Shown: positions 1-21,104 of the stretch, in pieces
Numbering within the stretch: the stretch's first letter is position 1
Layout: each line of letters starts with the position of its first letter
Program-made: the position numbers and the translations under genes
NCBI GenBank assembly: GCA_015295805.1
Contig: DVEF01000081.1
Span: 1-38,979 of the forward strand
Reading direction: 5' to 3'
DNA from: Geminocystis sp. M7585_C2015_104
GTDB taxonomy: Bacteria > Cyanobacteriota > Cyanobacteriia > Cyanobacteriales > Cyanobacteriaceae
DNA length: 38,979 bases
Notes under the pieces: generated by a model
What the model saw: the letters and a program-made list of their open reading frames with translations, nothing else
Database searches by the model: none
Told to the model about the DNA's origin: nothing

Positions 1-282
1 ATGGTATAACCATATACACCAAGAGCTAAATAACCTCCTTTTCAGTGGCCTCAAGGGCAATACCTCGGCATCTTGTAAGCCATAACCCAAAACCCCACAT
101 TTCCTCATCCTATCTTCCGGCCGGTCGAACAAACCCCGGTTGGGCATTGACCCCATATGTGCTAAAATGCGCTTGTGCCTCTAATCCCAGGAAAGTGGTT
201 GTCTCGTCATAGCCTCCAAGAGTTTCAATAGCAACTAAATCCTAACCCCCCCTAAATCCTAACCCCTAACCCCTATACCCCT
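1..282. other. Intergenic left edge with C-rich direct repeats
   Basis: I see no supportable gene here. A possible minus-strand ORF start lies in the first 22 bases behind an AGGAGG at 34-39, but too little is present to call it. TTGGGC (140-145) and TAAAAT (163-168) are 17 bp apart and could be a promoter for ybeY. The last 45 bases are C-rich direct repeats of the type CCTAACCCC running straight into the ybeY start codon. Confidence 0.4.
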
Positions 283-780
283 ATGACCTACCATCTAGAA
301 TTGTATCTGGAGGATTTGTATTTCAGCCAAAGACAAGAAAATCCGCCAATAACTGAGGCTCAATGGCAAAAATATCTGGAAAAATGGCTTAACAGTCTGG
401 AATTGGACTTGGATGCCCAAAAAAACTATGAAATGACCCTTCGCCTTACTGACGACGAAGACATCCAGAATTTCAACTACCAGTTCAGAAATAAAAATCA
501 ACCCACTGATGTGTTATCCTTCGCCGCTTTGGAAACAGAATTCCCTCCGTTGGAATTAGACAGTGTTATCCTGGGGGATGTGATTATCTCTGTGGAAACC
601 GCCTCCCGTCAAGCTCAACAACTGGGACACCCCCTCGAGGTAGAATTACTATGGTTGGCTAGTCATGGTTTATTACACCTACTAGGATGGGATCACCCGG
701 ATGAAAAATCCCTACAAGAAATGATAACCCTACAAGTCTCCCTCTTGGCTTCCATAGGCTATCATTACCCCTACTCTTAG
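283..780 (+). CDS. ybeY: Endoribonuclease YbeY (rRNA maturation factor)
   Basis: A 165-residue single-strand-specific endoribonuclease of the UPF0054 family. The family acts in 16S rRNA 3'-end maturation and ribosome quality control in the cytoplasm. The zinc motif HGLLHLLGWDH is complete, with His128, His132 and His138, and is preceded by the family signature PTDVLSF at about residues 75-81. Length is normal. The ATG at 283 sits in a pyrimidine-rich leader with no purine Shine-Dalgarno, which is odd for a core gene, though no better start is visible. It is the first gene of a plus-strand run with a 131-bp gap to the kinase-like gene behind it. A ybeY-dgkA neighbourhood is widespread in bacteria, which supports both calls. 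Confidence 0.95.
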   Translation: MTYHLELYLEDLYFSQRQENPPITEAQWQKYLEKWLNSLELDLDAQKNYEMTLRLTDDEDIQNFNYQFRNKNQPTDVLSFAALETEFPPLELDSVILGDVIISVETASRQAQQLGHPLEVELLWLASHGLLHLLGWDHPDEKSLQEMITLQVSLLASIGYHYPYS

Positions 781-11123: not shown

Positions 11124-11229
11124 TATTTTATTTTGTTTGTCTACTTGACATTAATTCTAACTTTCTTGCTTTTAACAACCATCAAAAAAGGATTAAACCC
11201 CTACCCCCCACCCCCCTACCCCCTGTGGC

Positions 11230-15836: not shown

Positions 15837-16631
15837 ATGAAAAGGGTATATTTACAATTTTTAAGGAGGATAAATGGCCGACAGGCGAAGGAATTGATGG
15901 CATTTTTTTTGTGGGGTTTATTGCTGTTTAAATATTGGGCAACGGGGGAATTATATTTACTAATTCATCCTAGCTATTTTCCCCTGGTTTTTGCTAGTAG
16001 TATTATTCTATTTTTGGTGTTTATAACTAAAGTCTATTTGTTGTTATTCCAGCCTAATTTTGCCTCGGGGGTGTTGGAAGAAAACAAATATAACAGTAGC
16101 CTTCTCCCTCGGGGGTGGGCAAGCAATTTATTGATTTTTGTGGCTATAATAGGTCTAACGGTGCCACCCATGGTGCTAAACAGTGAGACGGTGATGAAAA
16201 GGGGGGTTAATGACCTGCCGCCAACCACCCTGCAACCTCAGTCTTTTTCACCACAAACAGAGCCAGAAAAACGTTCTTTGATAGAATGGATAAGGACCCT
16301 AAGTGTATATCCAGAGCCCGACAATTATGTTGGTCAAAGGGCGGATATAAGTGGCTTCGTGGTATATGGGGAAAATTTGCCAGAAAATTATATCTATCTT
16401 TCCCGTTTTGTGCTAACCTGTTGTGCGGCAGATGCGTATCCGGTGGGTATGCTGGTAGAGTTGCCACAACCTCGCTATAAATATCCTCCAGACAGTTGGT
16501 TACAAGTCAGAGGAGTAATGAAAGTGGCAAATCTCCCCACCCTCTCAGAGAAGACGGCAAGAAGGCAATTGGCATTGCAGGCAGAAGAGGTAATAAGAAT
16601 AGCTGCCCCAAAAAATCCCTACCAATACTAA
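15837..16631 (+). CDS. TIGR03943/DUF1980 putative permease subunit
   Basis: A 264-residue protein with two or three N-terminal TM helices (about 20-65 and 95-112) and a C-terminal soluble domain. The conserved FVLTCCAADAYPVG (about residues 187-200) carries the adjacent Cys pair typical of this family and is a likely metal site. It is the obligate companion of the DUF318 permease and probably forms a membrane complex with it. The gene begins 26 bp after the permease stop; I see only a weak ribosome site. The pair is the last intact gene set before the 4-kb desert. Confidence 0.87.
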   Translation: MKRVYLQFLRRINGRQAKELMAFFLWGLLLFKYWATGELYLLIHPSYFPLVFASSIILFLVFITKVYLLLFQPNFASGVLEENKYNSSLLPRGWASNLLIFVAIIGLTVPPMVLNSETVMKRGVNDLPPTTLQPQSFSPQTEPEKRSLIEWIRTLSVYPEPDNYVGQRADISGFVVYGENLPENYIYLSRFVLTCCAADAYPVGMLVELPQPRYKYPPDSWLQVRGVMKVANLPTLSEKTARRQLALQAEEVIRIAAPKNPYQY

Positions 16632-16906
16632 CCCGCCTCCCAAGCCTAGTTGGTTATATTGCCCCATTGGAAAATACAAGCCAAAGTTACGCAGACAACC
16701 TGTAATTGTTTTCCTAAGTGGTCTCCCTGCTGGATATACGCCATCATCCCCAAAAATATGTCTGGCAAACTCAGCCAACTTTTCCCCCTAATGCTTTCCG
16801 GCTGGAAGCCATTTTTCGTGATTGATAAAATCTACTTTCTCAGGGAAAACACTTTGTTTATTCCAAGGCTATTCGCCCACAACAGAAGTGGAAAAGAAGT
16901 ATTTTT
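16632..16906. other. Intergenic, possible gene remnant
   Basis: Open frames here are short and overlap the 3' end of the DUF1980 gene. One frame (about 16673-16785) reads RRQPVIVFLSGLPAGY before a stop, which vaguely recalls the start of a P-loop protein, but the Lys of a P-loop is absent. I would not call it a gene. Confidence 0.3.
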
Positions 16907-17263
16907 ATGAATACCATTGAGTTAGAGAAATTAATATTTAATAGCCTAAGAAAGGGTGGTTATTTTCAGGAAGACACCAACATTAAGCAACTTGAAAAAG
17001 AAAATATTATTCCCCCATGGAGGTGGCAAGCAACAGCAGTGAATTCCCCAAAAAGTGCTAAATATTCTTGGGCAGCTGCCACTAGTAAATGGCAAAAAAT
17101 AGCTAAGAAAACACCCACCATATTCTTTTGTCTGGATGCTAGTAGCCGACGGGAGACAACCGACAACATACTGACAATCACACTTATCCCATCACACTTA
17201 TTTGGAATAGATACCACCAAGGGGGAGGATAGTCTAAAGTCTTTGGCTAGATGCCAAGGGTAG
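16907..17263 (+). CDS. Hypothetical ORF of doubtful reality
   Basis: A 118-codon open frame starting at an ATG behind AAAGAAGT. The first 60 residues (ELEKLIFNSLRKGGYF, PPWRWQATAV) look protein-like and moderately charged. The last third runs into the degenerate repeat array (TCTGGATGCT at 17131), so the C-terminus is probably not genuine. I do not recognise any family. It may be the tail of a decayed gene fused to repeats. Low-confidence record only. Confidence 0.3.
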   Translation: MNTIELEKLIFNSLRKGGYFQEDTNIKQLEKENIIPPWRWQATAVNSPKSAKYSWAAATSKWQKIAKKTPTIFFCLDASSRRETTDNILTITLIPSHLFGIDTTKGEDSLKSLARCQG

Positions 17264-18935
17264 ATGACAAGAAATGGCCTATAATTTTTTCCCAATACCG
17301 GCAAAGGATAGTAGCATTTCTAAATGCCAGTGGGGTAGAAGGAAACGGGGGATTGGAAGACAACTAATCATTTTTAAATACCAGTGATGGAGGGAAGACA
17401 GCCTAAAAAACACTAACTCATTCAGATGGCAGCGGTAAACAACGTGAGATGAATAAAAGACACTAATACTTTTTGTCTAGATGCCAACGGGTGACAAGGG
17501 GATAACCGAAAACACATACTAAATCATGCTTGTTGTCTAGACTAGATGTCACCGAGGGGGGATAGCCTACAATTGTTACCTGAATGCTGCGTATGACAAA
17601 ATGCTGTGTATGATGGGAAGTGGCTTCAAATCCCCCCTAGATAACAAAAGGTGACAGGAAACGGTTTATAATCCTTATAATCCTAGCCTGGGTGTCGGCA
17701 ACATACAACCCTCGTTTTTCTGGTTACTGGTGAAAAAAAGGTATGGTTTAAAACATACTACCCAGTCTTGTCTCGGTGTTAATGAGAGATAATAGGGGAT
17801 AACTCAAAATCATTGTCTAGATGCAAGTCAGACAAGACAAAAAGTAGCCTAAATATCATTACATAGCATTCTTGTGTGGATAGCAGTGGTAGATGACGAG
17901 AAAACAGCCAACCCACTCAGCAGCGGCTATTAGAGAATAACAAATAATGTCTTAAATAAATAAGCTCCTAATAAGACCTTAAAATGGGAAACAATAGCCT
18001 AAAACCCACTTGTCATCTCCTTATTTGATTATTTGAGTTACGGAAGTATCTGGCGACTGACAGATGACAATGGGTAGAATAACAGCTGAATTTGCTATCT
18101 AGACGTCATTGGGTAATAAAACCACAAAGAGAATAGTCTGAAAAACACCCACTATATTCTTATCTGGATTTCCGCTGGGAGGCAACAGATAATAGCCTGA
18201 AACACTATAGTCGCCTTCATCTAAAACTGTAGCAGACAACCAATGCCCAATGCCCAAAAAACCTGCAGAGGTGAGGATGAGAAAAACAGTCTAACGAAAG
18301 GCTGATTTTATTGTTATTCAGCCGCTAATGGCAGACAAAAATATCCCAAAAAATACTGGTATCCCACCCGGATGCCATCCCACCCGATGCCATTAGGAGA
18401 TAAAAGGGATTGTCTGAATAGGTGACTTGGAATTCTCTTCTGGATGCCAAAGGGATGCCAATATAAGGGGAAAGATGGCTTAAAACCCACCAGTCTTATC
18501 TGGAGGCTAAAAAGATAAAAGATAACAGCAAGGAAACAGCCTTTCCTCTCAAATCTCCGCATTGCCGTGGTTTGAAATCCAGTCTACCGGTAAAACACCA
18601 CAAAAAGTAGCCTGGAAATAAGTAAATCCCCGGTTATTGGCTTGAATACCGGTGGAGAAATGCTAGAGGCAGATGACATGACGGAAAATCTTGTTTAGCC
18701 GCTACTGGCAGAAACACAAAAGACATCCTAAAACTAAAAAAAAAAAAATACTAATCCTATGTCTGGATGCCTGCCTTATCTGTCTAGGCATAACAAGACA
18801 TAGCTGGAGAGATATTAATGCCCGACTGATAAACAGCCATAGAGAGATAACAAATGGTGACAGATGATGCAGGAAGAAAGGAAAAAAAGATGGGGGAATG
18901 ACTTGAAAACAAAATATGAGATTTTTGTCTGGATT
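17100..18935. repeat. Long degenerate tandem repeat array, period about 50-65 bp
   Basis: A core like TCTGGATGCC or TCTAGATGCC recurs at 17131, 17247, 17319, 17476, 17543 (as TAGATGTC), 17816, 18098, 18163, 18439, 18762 and 18928. It is followed after 25-35 bp by AGCCTAAAAC-type text (17400, 17570, 17848, 17996, 18134, 18192, 18477, 18608, 18725), often preceded by GGGAGATAACA-like purine text and followed by CACTAACTCATT. Spacing between neighbouring cores measured at 17321-17543 is 48-65 bp. No unit is exact, and all frames are closed. It is too degenerate and too long in period to be a CRISPR. Origin and function are unknown. Confidence 0.65.
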
Positions 18936-19400
18936 TTTATCCGGATAGGGGGATGTATGGTTTACTTTTAACGAGAATATTAGCACCATTTTATTTGACA
19001 ATTTTTTTGGCGGCGGTAGCCAATGTTAAACCACTTTTCTTTCGTTTCGTTTTGCTTTTTATCCTTGCTAAATGAAAGGGGAAAAGATACTTTAAATCTT
19101 GGGGATACTAATGCCAGTATCTTATACCCCCATAATTACCCGGGGATATTTTTGTTTTAGAGTTAGTTTTACCTTGCTGCCGAAATGGTTGTATTGTATG
19201 GTATTGCTGATTAGGTTTTTCAGTAATCTTTGCTTTCTTTCAGTAATCTTTGCAGATAAATAGTACTTCTCCAAACTAGAAGAATGGTAAGGAAAATGGT
19301 ATTGAAGGGTTGTCTGTTTTACGGCTGCCGGGAGAATATACATATTCACTAAGTCTTCATAAATTTCGTCCATTGGGGCGTCCGAGATTGTTTTTCTGCC
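18935..19400 (-). pseudogene. Relic of a sensor histidine kinase catalytic domain
   Basis: Reading the minus strand in one frame gives the kinase boxes in order. EIYEDLVNMYILPAA leads in, then the N box RLLKNLISNTIQYN and GSKVKLTLKQ. A TAA stop (19122-19124) sits immediately before a G1 box DTGISIPKI. After another stop come an F-box-like IFSPF and KAKRNERK. The G2/C-terminal part follows as PPPKKLSNKM with IFSLKVN, where the glycines are gone. At least four in-frame stops interrupt it. I cannot find a convincing H box upstream (19400-19900), so the sensor half is lost or beyond recognition. The family resembles OmpR-class partner kinases of cyanobacteria. It is clearly non-functional. Confidence 0.72.
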
Positions 19401-20870
19401 CCCCTTTGGCTGGGAGTAACAGGTATTATACCAGAAGTGACAATAATTTTTGTTTTCTGTTGGTTTTCTGTCTTTAAAGTTTTAGGATTTTCTGGCAAGA
19501 TTTGGGCGGGAAACTAATCCCAGTAAGGGTATTTCGCAATTTATGGAATACATCTGCCGCAAACCGTTTAAATTATTGGAGACTGGCAGGCATTGGCTGA
19601 CTGGATTTGTGACTCAAAAAAAAAAACGAAACTGGCGCAATTATGCTTATAGGACCAAACTGGGAGATAATTTAAACTAAGGGACAATAAGCCACACCCC
19701 AATACGCCCTATAATAACCGGAAGAGTTTAACTGGCAGTATTATTGAAAAAAAAATTGCTACTTTTGTTTGTAGTGCCTCAAGTTTCCATCCCTCTGGTT
19801 TTTTATTTATGCCCTATTGTTATTTATACCCCATTGTCAGGCTCCAAACCTATTATTTTATCTTGGAATAACAATTATCTAGCAATATTAGAATCATTTT
19901 TCTGGTGCATCTTGTAGATTTGATAGGATTATCTGAAAGAAAATGCTCCTTGTTTGAGGGGCGGGTGTGGATATTAAAAGCGATTGTTTCTCATAAGAAA
20001 CCACAAGCAATCCCATTACCACCGTCTACCGGTTTAGGAAGAATTTAGATTGGCATATTGGTCTTTTAGGCTGATGGCTAGGCTGATGGCAATCACCGCA
20101 ATTATTTTTGTTCTAAACTAACCATTCCCTGTTAGAATCCTGCTTATGATTATTTTCCATCAATCAGCAAAGGGGCGGTGTACTTTAGGTTTATACCTAT
20201 GGTTTGAGATTATTTATGTAAACAATTATTGCTTAAATTCACTGCATTTTAAAAGGGCAATAGGGTATAATTTAATAGGTATTACCAATATTTTTACCAT
20301 TTTATTTTGCATATTTGTTAAGATATAATACGAGGGTGCGGCCATGGCGAGGCAACAATTAGCTGGTTTATGAAGTTAGAATATAGCCTAAACAATAATC
20401 CGATTTAAGAGGATATAAATGGCTATTAAAACCCTAGAAATAGCATCTATTTTGTCCCATTTTTTATACGGCATATTTATATGCTATTCGCCTTGGTTAT
20501 CTTCAAGGAGAATATAAGCCAGTTAAGTTAAATCAGGCTGAGGGAACAATAAAAAGGTATTTTTTATACGCTTAATAGTTTCAGGGAAAAAAAACAAAAA
20601 AAACTGCCAGTGTTATGGAGTAAATAATCTTGAACCTCGTGGGGCGGAAATGGGAAAATCTTGAGAAAGGAGGAGGGAGAAGGAGGAAACAAGGGGAGAG
20701 GTGAAAAAAAAGTTATTTTTGGGGAGGACTTTGCTAAACTAGAGAGAGGGAGCTAAGACAACGATTTGAGGTGTCTGCTCCTAGTCTAACACGGTTCCCC
20801 TAAAGGGGACATGGGGTTGGAAAAAAGCAATAAGCATGGCAATTAGACAATATAAGAGGGACTAACAGTT
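19401..20870. other. AT-rich region without genes, leading to cp12
   Basis: Short open frames only. One frame at about 19542-19679 (45 codons, basic, FVTQKKKRNWRNYAY) is isolated. Another at 20146-20328 is Ile/Phe-rich. Neither has a ribosome site plus family match. The last 170 bp hold the cp12 leader with a TCCCC/GGGGA hairpin. The remainder of the 16.6-20.8 kb desert is likely decayed DNA. Confidence 0.5.
20796..20809 (+). promoter_or_regulatory. Leader hairpin before cp12
   Basis: TCCCC-TAAA-GGGGA, a perfect 5-bp stem with a TAAA loop, about 62 bp before the cp12 ATG. It has no T-tract, so it is more likely a leader structure than a terminator. Confidence 0.4.
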
Positions 20871-21104
20871 ATGGGCAATTTGGAAAACTTAGAGGAAAGA
20901 ATCCAAGAGGAAATCAAACACGCTAGGGAAGTGTGCGAAAATCCCAACAGTACAAGTGCTGAATGTGCAGCCGCTTGGGATGCAGTAGAGGAATTGCAGG
21001 CAGAGGCGGCGCACCAGCGGGTAAAAGAGGAACATAAGACTTCGCTGGAAAAATACTGCGAGGAGAATCCCGACGCGGTAGAGTGTCGCATATATGATGA
21101 CTAG
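20871..21104 (+). CDS. cp12: CP12, Calvin-cycle redox regulator
   Basis: A 77-residue intrinsically disordered protein that links GAPDH and phosphoribulokinase into an inactive complex in the dark. The hallmark AWDAVEEL is at residues 35-42. The four regulatory Cys are all present: Cys22 and Cys32 (PRK side), and Cys63 and Cys72 in YCEENPDAVEC (GAPDH side), with the terminal RIYDD inserting near GAPDH. GAGGGACTAACAGTT precedes the ATG. It stands alone between the desert and a DUF3177 gene. This is a complete, canonical CP12 without a CBS fusion. Confidence 0.96.
   Translation: MGNLENLEERIQEEIKHAREVCENPNSTSAECAAAWDAVEELQAEAAHQRVKEEHKTSLEKYCEENPDAVECRIYDD

What the first reader, a model, noticed from the sequence alone, without database searches (positions are those of the whole stretch)
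17100..18935. About 1.8 kb of ancient, highly degenerate tandem repeats with no known class
A core (TCTRGATGCC) and a second block (AGCCTAAAAC) alternate at roughly 50-65 bp across the whole interval, but no two units are identical. The units carry stops in all frames and are not CRISPR-like. It may be a decayed satellite, an old expansion of an extragenic repeat, or a series of binding sites or small RNAs. It fills most of the largest gene-free region in the window.
Basis: seen in the sequence. Interest (0 to 1): 0.65.

Follow-up and report, generated by a model that had tools for sequence, protein, structure and literature searches.

The report
Fossil tandem repeat array, cyanobacterial spacer
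A stretch of about 1.9 kb between genes in a cyanobacterium is a very old, decayed head-to-tail DNA repeat that also sits at the same place in its sister species, and several other spacers sampled in these two genomes hold similar arrays with different repeat units.

Summary
About 17,069-18,950 holds a degenerate head-to-tail array, mean spacing 57 bp, units on one strand. It scores far above dinucleotide shuffles, but TRF reports only fragments. The sister species (G001) has an array with the same unit at the same place, between a sensor-kinase and a PepSY_TM gene; a profile from window units finds it. In four genomes of another genus that spacer is only about 155-457 bp, without units. A unit profile finds no second locus in either genome, nor an array in 13 other family genomes or a 148-genome sample of the order. 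Units within a species are no more alike than between the two. No RNA fold or coding signal was found. Best reading: an old single-locus minisatellite that grew before the species split, then decayed.

Other spacers also hold arrays, with other units; three more array loci look shared by both species, and G001 has two young arrays. But in stretches not chosen by unit hits, arrays are 2 of 34 long gaps in G000 and 8 of 42 in G001, against 2 of 30 in controls: enrichment is suggestive in G001 only. Function, if any, is undetermined.

The parts
17069..18950 (+). degenerate tandem array, unit about 57-59 bp, about 33 unit lengths (tiling forced), units in the same orientation
17472..17517 (+). best-scoring unit (33 bits to the unit profile)
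17242..17291 (+). second-best unit of the window (28.7 bits)
17304..17551 (+). patch of the array with two local matches to the sister array on nearby diagonals (72% and 68% identity); possibly orthologous
   Evidence: positions 680-751 and 810-927 of the stretch that starts at 16625
16682..16786 (-). decayed remnant of the PepSY_TM gene that is intact in the sister species
18961..19620 (-). decayed remnant of the sensor histidine kinase gene (C-terminal half, four tblastn pieces); intact in the sister species
15837..16631 (+). DUF1980 gene, left conserved neighbour
20871..21104 (+). 77-aa ORF that looks like CP12 (recalled resemblance, no family search made), right conserved neighbour
   Evidence: region 83% identical in the sister
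16907..17263 (+). 118-aa orphan ORF overlapping the first units; perhaps a chance frame
   Evidence: no Pfam match; no relative in 39 other genomes

Best explanation
It is a fossil minisatellite. In the common ancestor of the two species of this genus, a sequence of about 59 bp in the spacer between a sensor-kinase gene and a PepSY_TM gene was amplified head to tail, by slippage or unequal recombination, to some tens of copies (inferred). Amplification stopped, and the copies then diverged by point mutation and small indels without being made alike again (shown: no species-specific homogenisation). In the window's species the neighbouring two-component and PepSY genes have also died (shown). 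Amplification of other local sequences has happened at other spacers of these genomes, and two such arrays in the sister species are young (shown for those loci). No sequence-dependent function is needed; the array is most likely tolerated spacer DNA (inferred).
For: Array real and head to tail. Same unit, strand and place in sister species G001. A profile from window units alone finds 9 places at E<0.1 in the 19.5-kb sister stretch, all 9 inside its array; one from sister units finds 4 at E<0.1 in the 39-kb window, all 4 inside the array, though those sister seeds had been picked with the window's core motif. Absent from other genera at this place: in G008, G010, G012 and G014 the HK-PepSY spacer is about 457, 331, 341 and 155 bp with no unit at E<=10. 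Single locus. Mean unit-unit identity is 0.448 within the window, 0.425 within the sister, 0.439 between them: no concerted evolution. Fourfold sites of 9 flanking genes are 64% identical (1253 sites), so units at about 44% probably diverged before the species did. Unit lengths show no excess of multiples of three (mod-3 counts 11/8/14 and 13/11/17) and all six frames carry many stops. Birth seen elsewhere: 36 bp x 21 and 17/35-bp arrays in G001 (L119) against a 225-bp spacer in which I read by eye about two degenerate units, and an abutting junction, in G000.
Against: Order of units is not conserved with the sister beyond block-shuffled controls (z 0.0, 60 permutations at each of two block sizes), although the dead kinase next to it still aligns over 710 columns at 66%; so the array has been rearranged more than plain decay predicts. 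Column conservation is uneven (26-84%), which could mean constraint on the core, though anchoring of the alignment on the core also does this. Neutral DNA is usually deleted in bacteria (general knowledge), yet the array persists in two species.
Confidence: 0.7

Rival explanations
1. The units are degenerate binding sites, for instance for the response regulator encoded next to the array or for a nucleoid protein, kept by selection on the core TCTGGATGCC.
For: Some core columns are better conserved than linkers; the core is shared by two species; the array lies in a two-component operon. In Mycobacterium tuberculosis the senX3-regX3 spacer holds MIRU repeats that can drive regX3 (PMC4213456, two passages seen).
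Against: No unit in the HK-PepSY spacers of four genomes of another genus that keep these genes together; no profile hit in the PepSY promoter-proximal part of the sister locus; in the window the kinase is dead and no regulator was found at the locus, the best relative in the genome being 43% identical, while the array remains. Promoter-like sites are 9 against 5.5 +- 2.1 in shuffles, a slight excess.
Confidence: 0.12
2. A dead or dying gene for a protein with roughly 20-residue repeats.
For: Period near 60 bp; the first units overlap a 118-aa open frame.
Against: Many stops in all six frames in both species and no mod-3 bias of unit lengths; no relative of the 118-aa frame in 39 other genomes; only short spacers between HK and PepSY in the four genomes of another genus that keep them adjacent.
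Confidence: 0.04
3. A decayed CRISPR array.
For: Rough periodicity, non-coding, tens of units.
Against: Both halves of the unit are conserved, so there are no unique spacers; spacing varies widely; no RNA fold. Cas genes were not searched for.
Confidence: 0.02
4. A local array grown from a dispersed extragenic element (REP, MITE or MIRU-like).
For: Other spacers of these genomes also hold arrays, and this array shows some similarity to one of them (z 13.8 on one strand).
Against: The unit occurs nowhere else in either genome at E<0.01; the other arrays examined have different units; the z-13.8 similarity looked like purine runs on inspection.
Confidence: 0.06

Closest known systems
Bacterial minisatellites / VNTR loci (general class, recalled)
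   Same: Head-to-tail units of tens of bp in an intergenic spacer; lineage-specific growth seen at other loci of the sister genome
   Different: VNTRs known from typing are mostly short, near-identical and variable (recalled); this array is about 1.9 kb, highly degenerate, shows no recent unit duplication, and is shared by two species whose fourfold sites are 64% identical
MIRU of the senX3-regX3 spacer in Mycobacterium tuberculosis (PMC4213456, passages seen)
   Same: Tandem units of 53-77 bp between genes of a two-component operon
   Different: There H37Rv has three identical 77-bp copies, and MIRUs are dispersed (recalled); this unit is single-locus, about 33 copies, degenerate, without ORF or fold
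Cyanobacterial STRR and LTRR repeats (recalled; LTRR later seen as CRISPR)
   Same: Tandem repeats in cyanobacterial spacers
   Different: Unit length and sequence differ (recalled); no conserved repeat with unique spacers
Triplex-prone repeats in bacteria (PMC4666352, passages seen)
   Same: Several arrays of these genomes are strongly purine- or pyrimidine-biased
   Different: No triplex motif was searched for here

Membership tests
Intergenic minisatellite (tandem array) | head-to-tail copies, same strand, beyond chance | tested here: met
Intergenic minisatellite (tandem array) | located in a non-coding spacer | tested here: met
   stops in all six frames; no Pfam match for the frames tried there
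Intergenic minisatellite (tandem array) | copy number changes between close relatives (activity) | tested here: inconclusive
   lengths differ (about 1.9 vs 2.4 kb) but no recent duplicate unit (max identity 0.745 and 0.723); no strain-level data
VNTR, active | near-identical copies | tested here: not met
   mean unit identity 0.448
MIRU / dispersed extragenic repeat | copies at many loci of the genome | tested here: not met
   in own genome and sister only this locus at E<0.01
REP/MITE | inverted repeat or hairpin in the unit | tested here: not met
   0 consensus pairs; 178 of 200 shuffles fold at least as well as the consensus
CRISPR array | conserved repeat alternating with unique spacers | tested here: not met
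   both unit halves conserved
CRISPR array | cas genes nearby | not tested
   no dedicated search; none of the 15 frames given to Pfam (12 window, 3 sister) matched a Cas family
Repeat-protein pseudogene | unit length multiple of 3, one frame depleted of stops | tested here: not met
Known RNA family | Rfam match above gathering score | tested here: not met
   0 matches in the window

The most novel reading that the evidence does not exclude
This cyanobacterial genus, probably from hot springs, behaves in its spacers like a small eukaryotic genome: locus-specific satellite arrays are born, grow to kilobases, persist at fixed positions through speciation and decay, perhaps because repeat removal is impaired, or because long, strand-biased spacers are useful irrespective of their sequence (insulating neighbouring genes or organising the chromosome). 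My own unbiased sample supports enrichment in the sister genome only, not in the window's genome.
Probability: 0.18. Interest if true: 0.65.

Novelty: new variant of a known kind. Interest (0 to 1): 0.4.

Why it matters
Bacterial spacers are thought to lose useless DNA quickly. Here a kilobase array without detectable coding or folding content stays at the same place in two species while its sequence decays, and younger arrays nearby in the sister genome show how such arrays start. If more species bear this out, arrays of graded age would let the life cycle of a minisatellite be dated in a prokaryote.

Tried and rejected
Small RNA or structured repeat: Rfam, RNAalifold and three of four single folds negative. 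Coding repeat: rejected. Dispersed element: rejected at the sensitivity of a 58-position sequence profile; the two single hits in other genera of the order (E 8.4e-4 and 2.7e-3 per genome, 148 genomes) are about what chance allows. A common ancestral unit for all arrays: suggested by eye (a TAGACACCCAGTGG-like core) and by z 13.8 (window against L116, one strand) and 21.4 and 17.2 (L116 against L099, the two strands); the printed window-L116 matches looked mainly like purine runs, so not claimed; L116-L099 was not followed. De novo fits with 120-column models are overfitted and not used. A first global alignment was badly scored and replaced. Pyrimidine bias of the sense strand: 5 of 9 G001 co-directional gaps of at least 800 bp lie below 0.45 purine, but one array is 0.66, and G000 shows it in 1 of 7; not general. 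A published description was looked for in eight searches and none was seen in their listings; one search returned no paper. Four papers were opened by term search: three gave passages, one none.

Full report
WHAT IS THERE. The stretch 17100-18935 is strongly self-similar: 391 matching 21-base placements against 49 +- 16 in 40 dinucleotide shuffles, with offset peaks at 50-65 bp. The unit was defined by fuzzy core matches, iterative profiles and a cyclic profile fit over the window and the sister locus. Fitted scores are 373 and 322 for the two arrays against 71-125 and 92-197 in 12 pairs of shuffled sequences treated alike. The starting consensus is TTGTCTGGATGCCAGTGGGAGATGACAAGGGGATAACAGCCTAAAACACTAATCATTCT, 59 columns; mean spacing is 56.8 +- 9.6 bp in the window (34 starts, tiling forced). 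All units found point the same way. TRF does not report the array as such.

THE SISTER SPECIES. The only other genome held for the genus, G001, has the window's left neighbours (ArsP_1 permease and DUF1980) and right neighbours at about 81-83% DNA identity. Its contig length equals that of JAUQQP010000051.1, Cyanobacteriota bacterium SRBZ.bins.94.201705. SRBZ is the code of the ShuiReBaoZha hot spring in PMC11304991, one of eight springs in Tibet and Yunnan (passages seen); that the MAG comes from there is inference from the name. Between these neighbours G001 has an intact PepSY_TM gene, about 2.4 kb of degenerate repeats with the same unit and strand, and an intact sensor kinase and response regulator with a Trans_reg_C domain. 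In the window the kinase and PepSY genes survive only as fragments (18961-19620 and 16682-16786) and no regulator was found between 16001 and 21500; the best relative elsewhere in G000 is 43% identical. Trained on window units only, a profile finds 9 places at E<0.1 in the 19.5-kb sister stretch, all 9 in its array. Trained on sister units, it finds 4 at E<0.1 in the 39-kb window, all 4 in the array, but the sister seeds had been picked by likeness to the window's core. The first direction is the cleaner evidence that both arrays share one unit.

OTHER GENERA. Of seven stretches fetched around regulator or PepSY relatives, four, all from one other genus (G008, G010, G012, G014), hold kinase and PepSY gene side by side, with about 457, 331, 341 and 155 bp between the match ends; in the two G004 stretches the genes lie apart, and the G005 stretch shows no kinase match. 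The unit profile matched none of the other fetched loci at E<=10. The array is therefore most simply an addition in this genus. A 58-position sequence profile built from 22 units (13 window, 9 sister) finds only this locus in G000 and G001 at E<0.01, and no match below 0.0116 elsewhere in 15 genomes of the family, where the tool scored the 150 best candidates per genome. In 148 genomes of the order, with stricter filters and 37 candidates each, two single hits in other genera appear at 8.4e-4 and 2.7e-3.

AGE AND MODE OF EVOLUTION. Mean identity between units (aligned to the fitted consensus, which inflates it; 33 window and 42 sister units with at least 40 columns) is 0.448 within the window (528 pairs), 0.425 within the sister (861) and 0.439 between (1385); letters shuffled within units give 0.26. 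So neither species has homogenised its array since the split. Fourfold-degenerate sites of nine flanking genes are 64.3% identical (1253 sites; codon bias may raise this). Units at about 44% are thus probably older than the split. Against simple decay: the order of units is not conserved between species beyond block-shuffled controls at this locus (z 0.0 at two block sizes, 60 permutations each) nor at L126/L162 (z -0.9, 24 each), though it partly is at L116/L161 (z 4.4 and 2.2, 24 each). Here only one patch of about 250 bp (17304-17551) gives two local matches on nearby diagonals, while the dead kinase next door still aligns at 65.8% over 710 columns. The array has therefore been reshuffled or trimmed more than its single-copy neighbour. 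The highest unit-unit identities (0.745 and 0.723 within, 0.79 between) show no recent duplication of a whole unit.

WHAT IT IS NOT. No Rfam family at gathering score in the window; no consensus base pair over 22 units; of four sequences folded singly one was better than most shuffles (z -2.2) and three were not. Six frames hold 25-47 stops in 638 codons in the window array, and unit lengths show no bias to multiples of three. Both halves of the unit are conserved, so it is not repeat plus spacer as in CRISPR. Promoter-like sites (9 against 5.5 +- 2.1) are slightly above, terminator-like sites (1 against 2.1 +- 1.6) slightly below, the shuffles.

THE WIDER FINDING AND ITS LIMIT. I compared ORF-poor gaps of at least 600 bp with their own shuffles (first 3000 bases of each). 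The first sample gave z>5 in 4 of 33 gaps of G000 (392 kb) and 7 of 24 of G001 (401 kb), against 2 of 30 in evenly spaced stretches of three genomes of other genera (400 kb); two of the 11 are this locus, and three of the G001 gaps are one locus, L116. But five of the contigs (C52 and C93 of G000; C4, C6 and C46 of G001) had been chosen because weak unit hits named them. Leaving out those contigs and this locus, and adding 20 fresh stretches from each genome taken by contig number, the count is 2 of 34 gaps in G000 (6.6 kb of 479 kb), 8 of 42 in G001 (20.9 kb of 593 kb), and 2 of 30 in the controls (3.1 kb of 400 kb). Enrichment is thus suggestive in G001 and not seen in G000. The control gaps are poorer in G+C and shorter; one control hit is a heptamer-type repeat and one AT-rich. 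The six fresh hits were not inspected, so some may be other things.

What the examined arrays show: different units, with spacings of about 36, 41, 44-51 and 50 bp in the clearest. Beside this locus, three array pairs at matching places in the two genomes share repeated words on one strand only: both sides of a cofH-like gene (L116/L161, two arrays) and the comEC-glycerate kinase spacer (L126/L162); with this locus the z values are 24-34 on one strand and -3.1 to 0.8 on the other. Caution: pairs at unrelated places reached z 13.8 (window against L116, one strand) and 21.4 and 17.2 (L116 against L099, both strands), so z alone does not prove a shared unit. At the cofH-like gene the upstream spacers are 5.1 and 4.5 kb long and give no BLASTN match at E<=1e-4. 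For L106 and L099 the matching spacer could not be delimited. Two arrays are young and, of the two genomes, in G001 only: 36 bp x 21 after a fumC-like gene, where G000 has a 225-bp spacer in which I read by eye about two degenerate copies, and a 17/35-bp array where the flanking G000 sequence abuts directly. The gene names cofH, comEC, glycerate kinase, fumC and CP12 are recalled from the protein sequences and come from no family search.

HOW IT MOST LIKELY WORKS. Shown: tandem structure, shared place and unit in two species, absence from the spacers of another genus, lack of homogenisation, young arrays elsewhere. Inferred: amplification by slippage or unequal recombination, arrest by divergence of copies, and persistence because nothing selects strongly against it. 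I give this 0.7. Binding-site function is the main rival (0.12). The closest parallel I saw in print is the MIRU-bearing senX3-regX3 spacer of M. tuberculosis (PMC4213456, passages), which shows that repeats between two-component genes can matter for expression; in H37Rv those copies are three and identical.

LIMITS. Both genomes are in many contigs (108 and 50), and the G001 contig title reports about 3x coverage; an artefact would hardly create the same unit at the same place twice, but exact lengths may be wrong. Only two species of the genus were available. Self-similarity z-scores depend on gap length and composition.

Noticed in passing
L116 2645-7740 and 8890-12140 (G001:C4), with L161 (G000:C108): About 5 kb and 3.3 kb of pyrimidine-rich degenerate arrays on either side of a cofH-like gene; the G000 spacers are arrays too but give almost no BLASTN match.
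   Followed up: partly
L119 3572-4347 and 6569-6983 (G001:C6): Two young, fairly homogeneous arrays (36 bp x 21; 17/35 bp) in G001; G000 has about two degenerate copies of the first (by eye) and nothing at the second place.
   Followed up: partly
L099 14460-19246 (G000:C52): What look like three adjacent non-coding arrays with different units and opposite purine bias in one 4.8-kb spacer.
   Followed up: partly
L126 5180-9560 (G001:C3) and L162 (G000:C80): 4.4-kb against 2.3-kb degenerate array in the comEC-glycerate kinase spacer (gene names recalled), shared words on one strand.
   Followed up: partly
L200 11573-17922, L197 1-3518, L199 10739-12767 (G001); L172 1941-4703 (G000): Further long ORF-poor gaps with strong self-similarity (z 8.8 to 31.3), not inspected.
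   Followed up: no
window 16682-16786 and 18961-19620: A two-component/PepSY gene group intact in the sister species is dead in the window's species.
   Followed up: partly
window 249-283 and 11198-11224: Short arrays of a C-rich heptamer (CCCCTAA / CCCCTAC), like the short tandem repeats known from cyanobacteria (recalled).
   Followed up: no
L091 1-2608 (G000:C93 end), L106 10060-13910 (G000:C4), L130 14515-15518 (G001:C9): Further self-similar non-coding spacers with their own units.
   Followed up: partly
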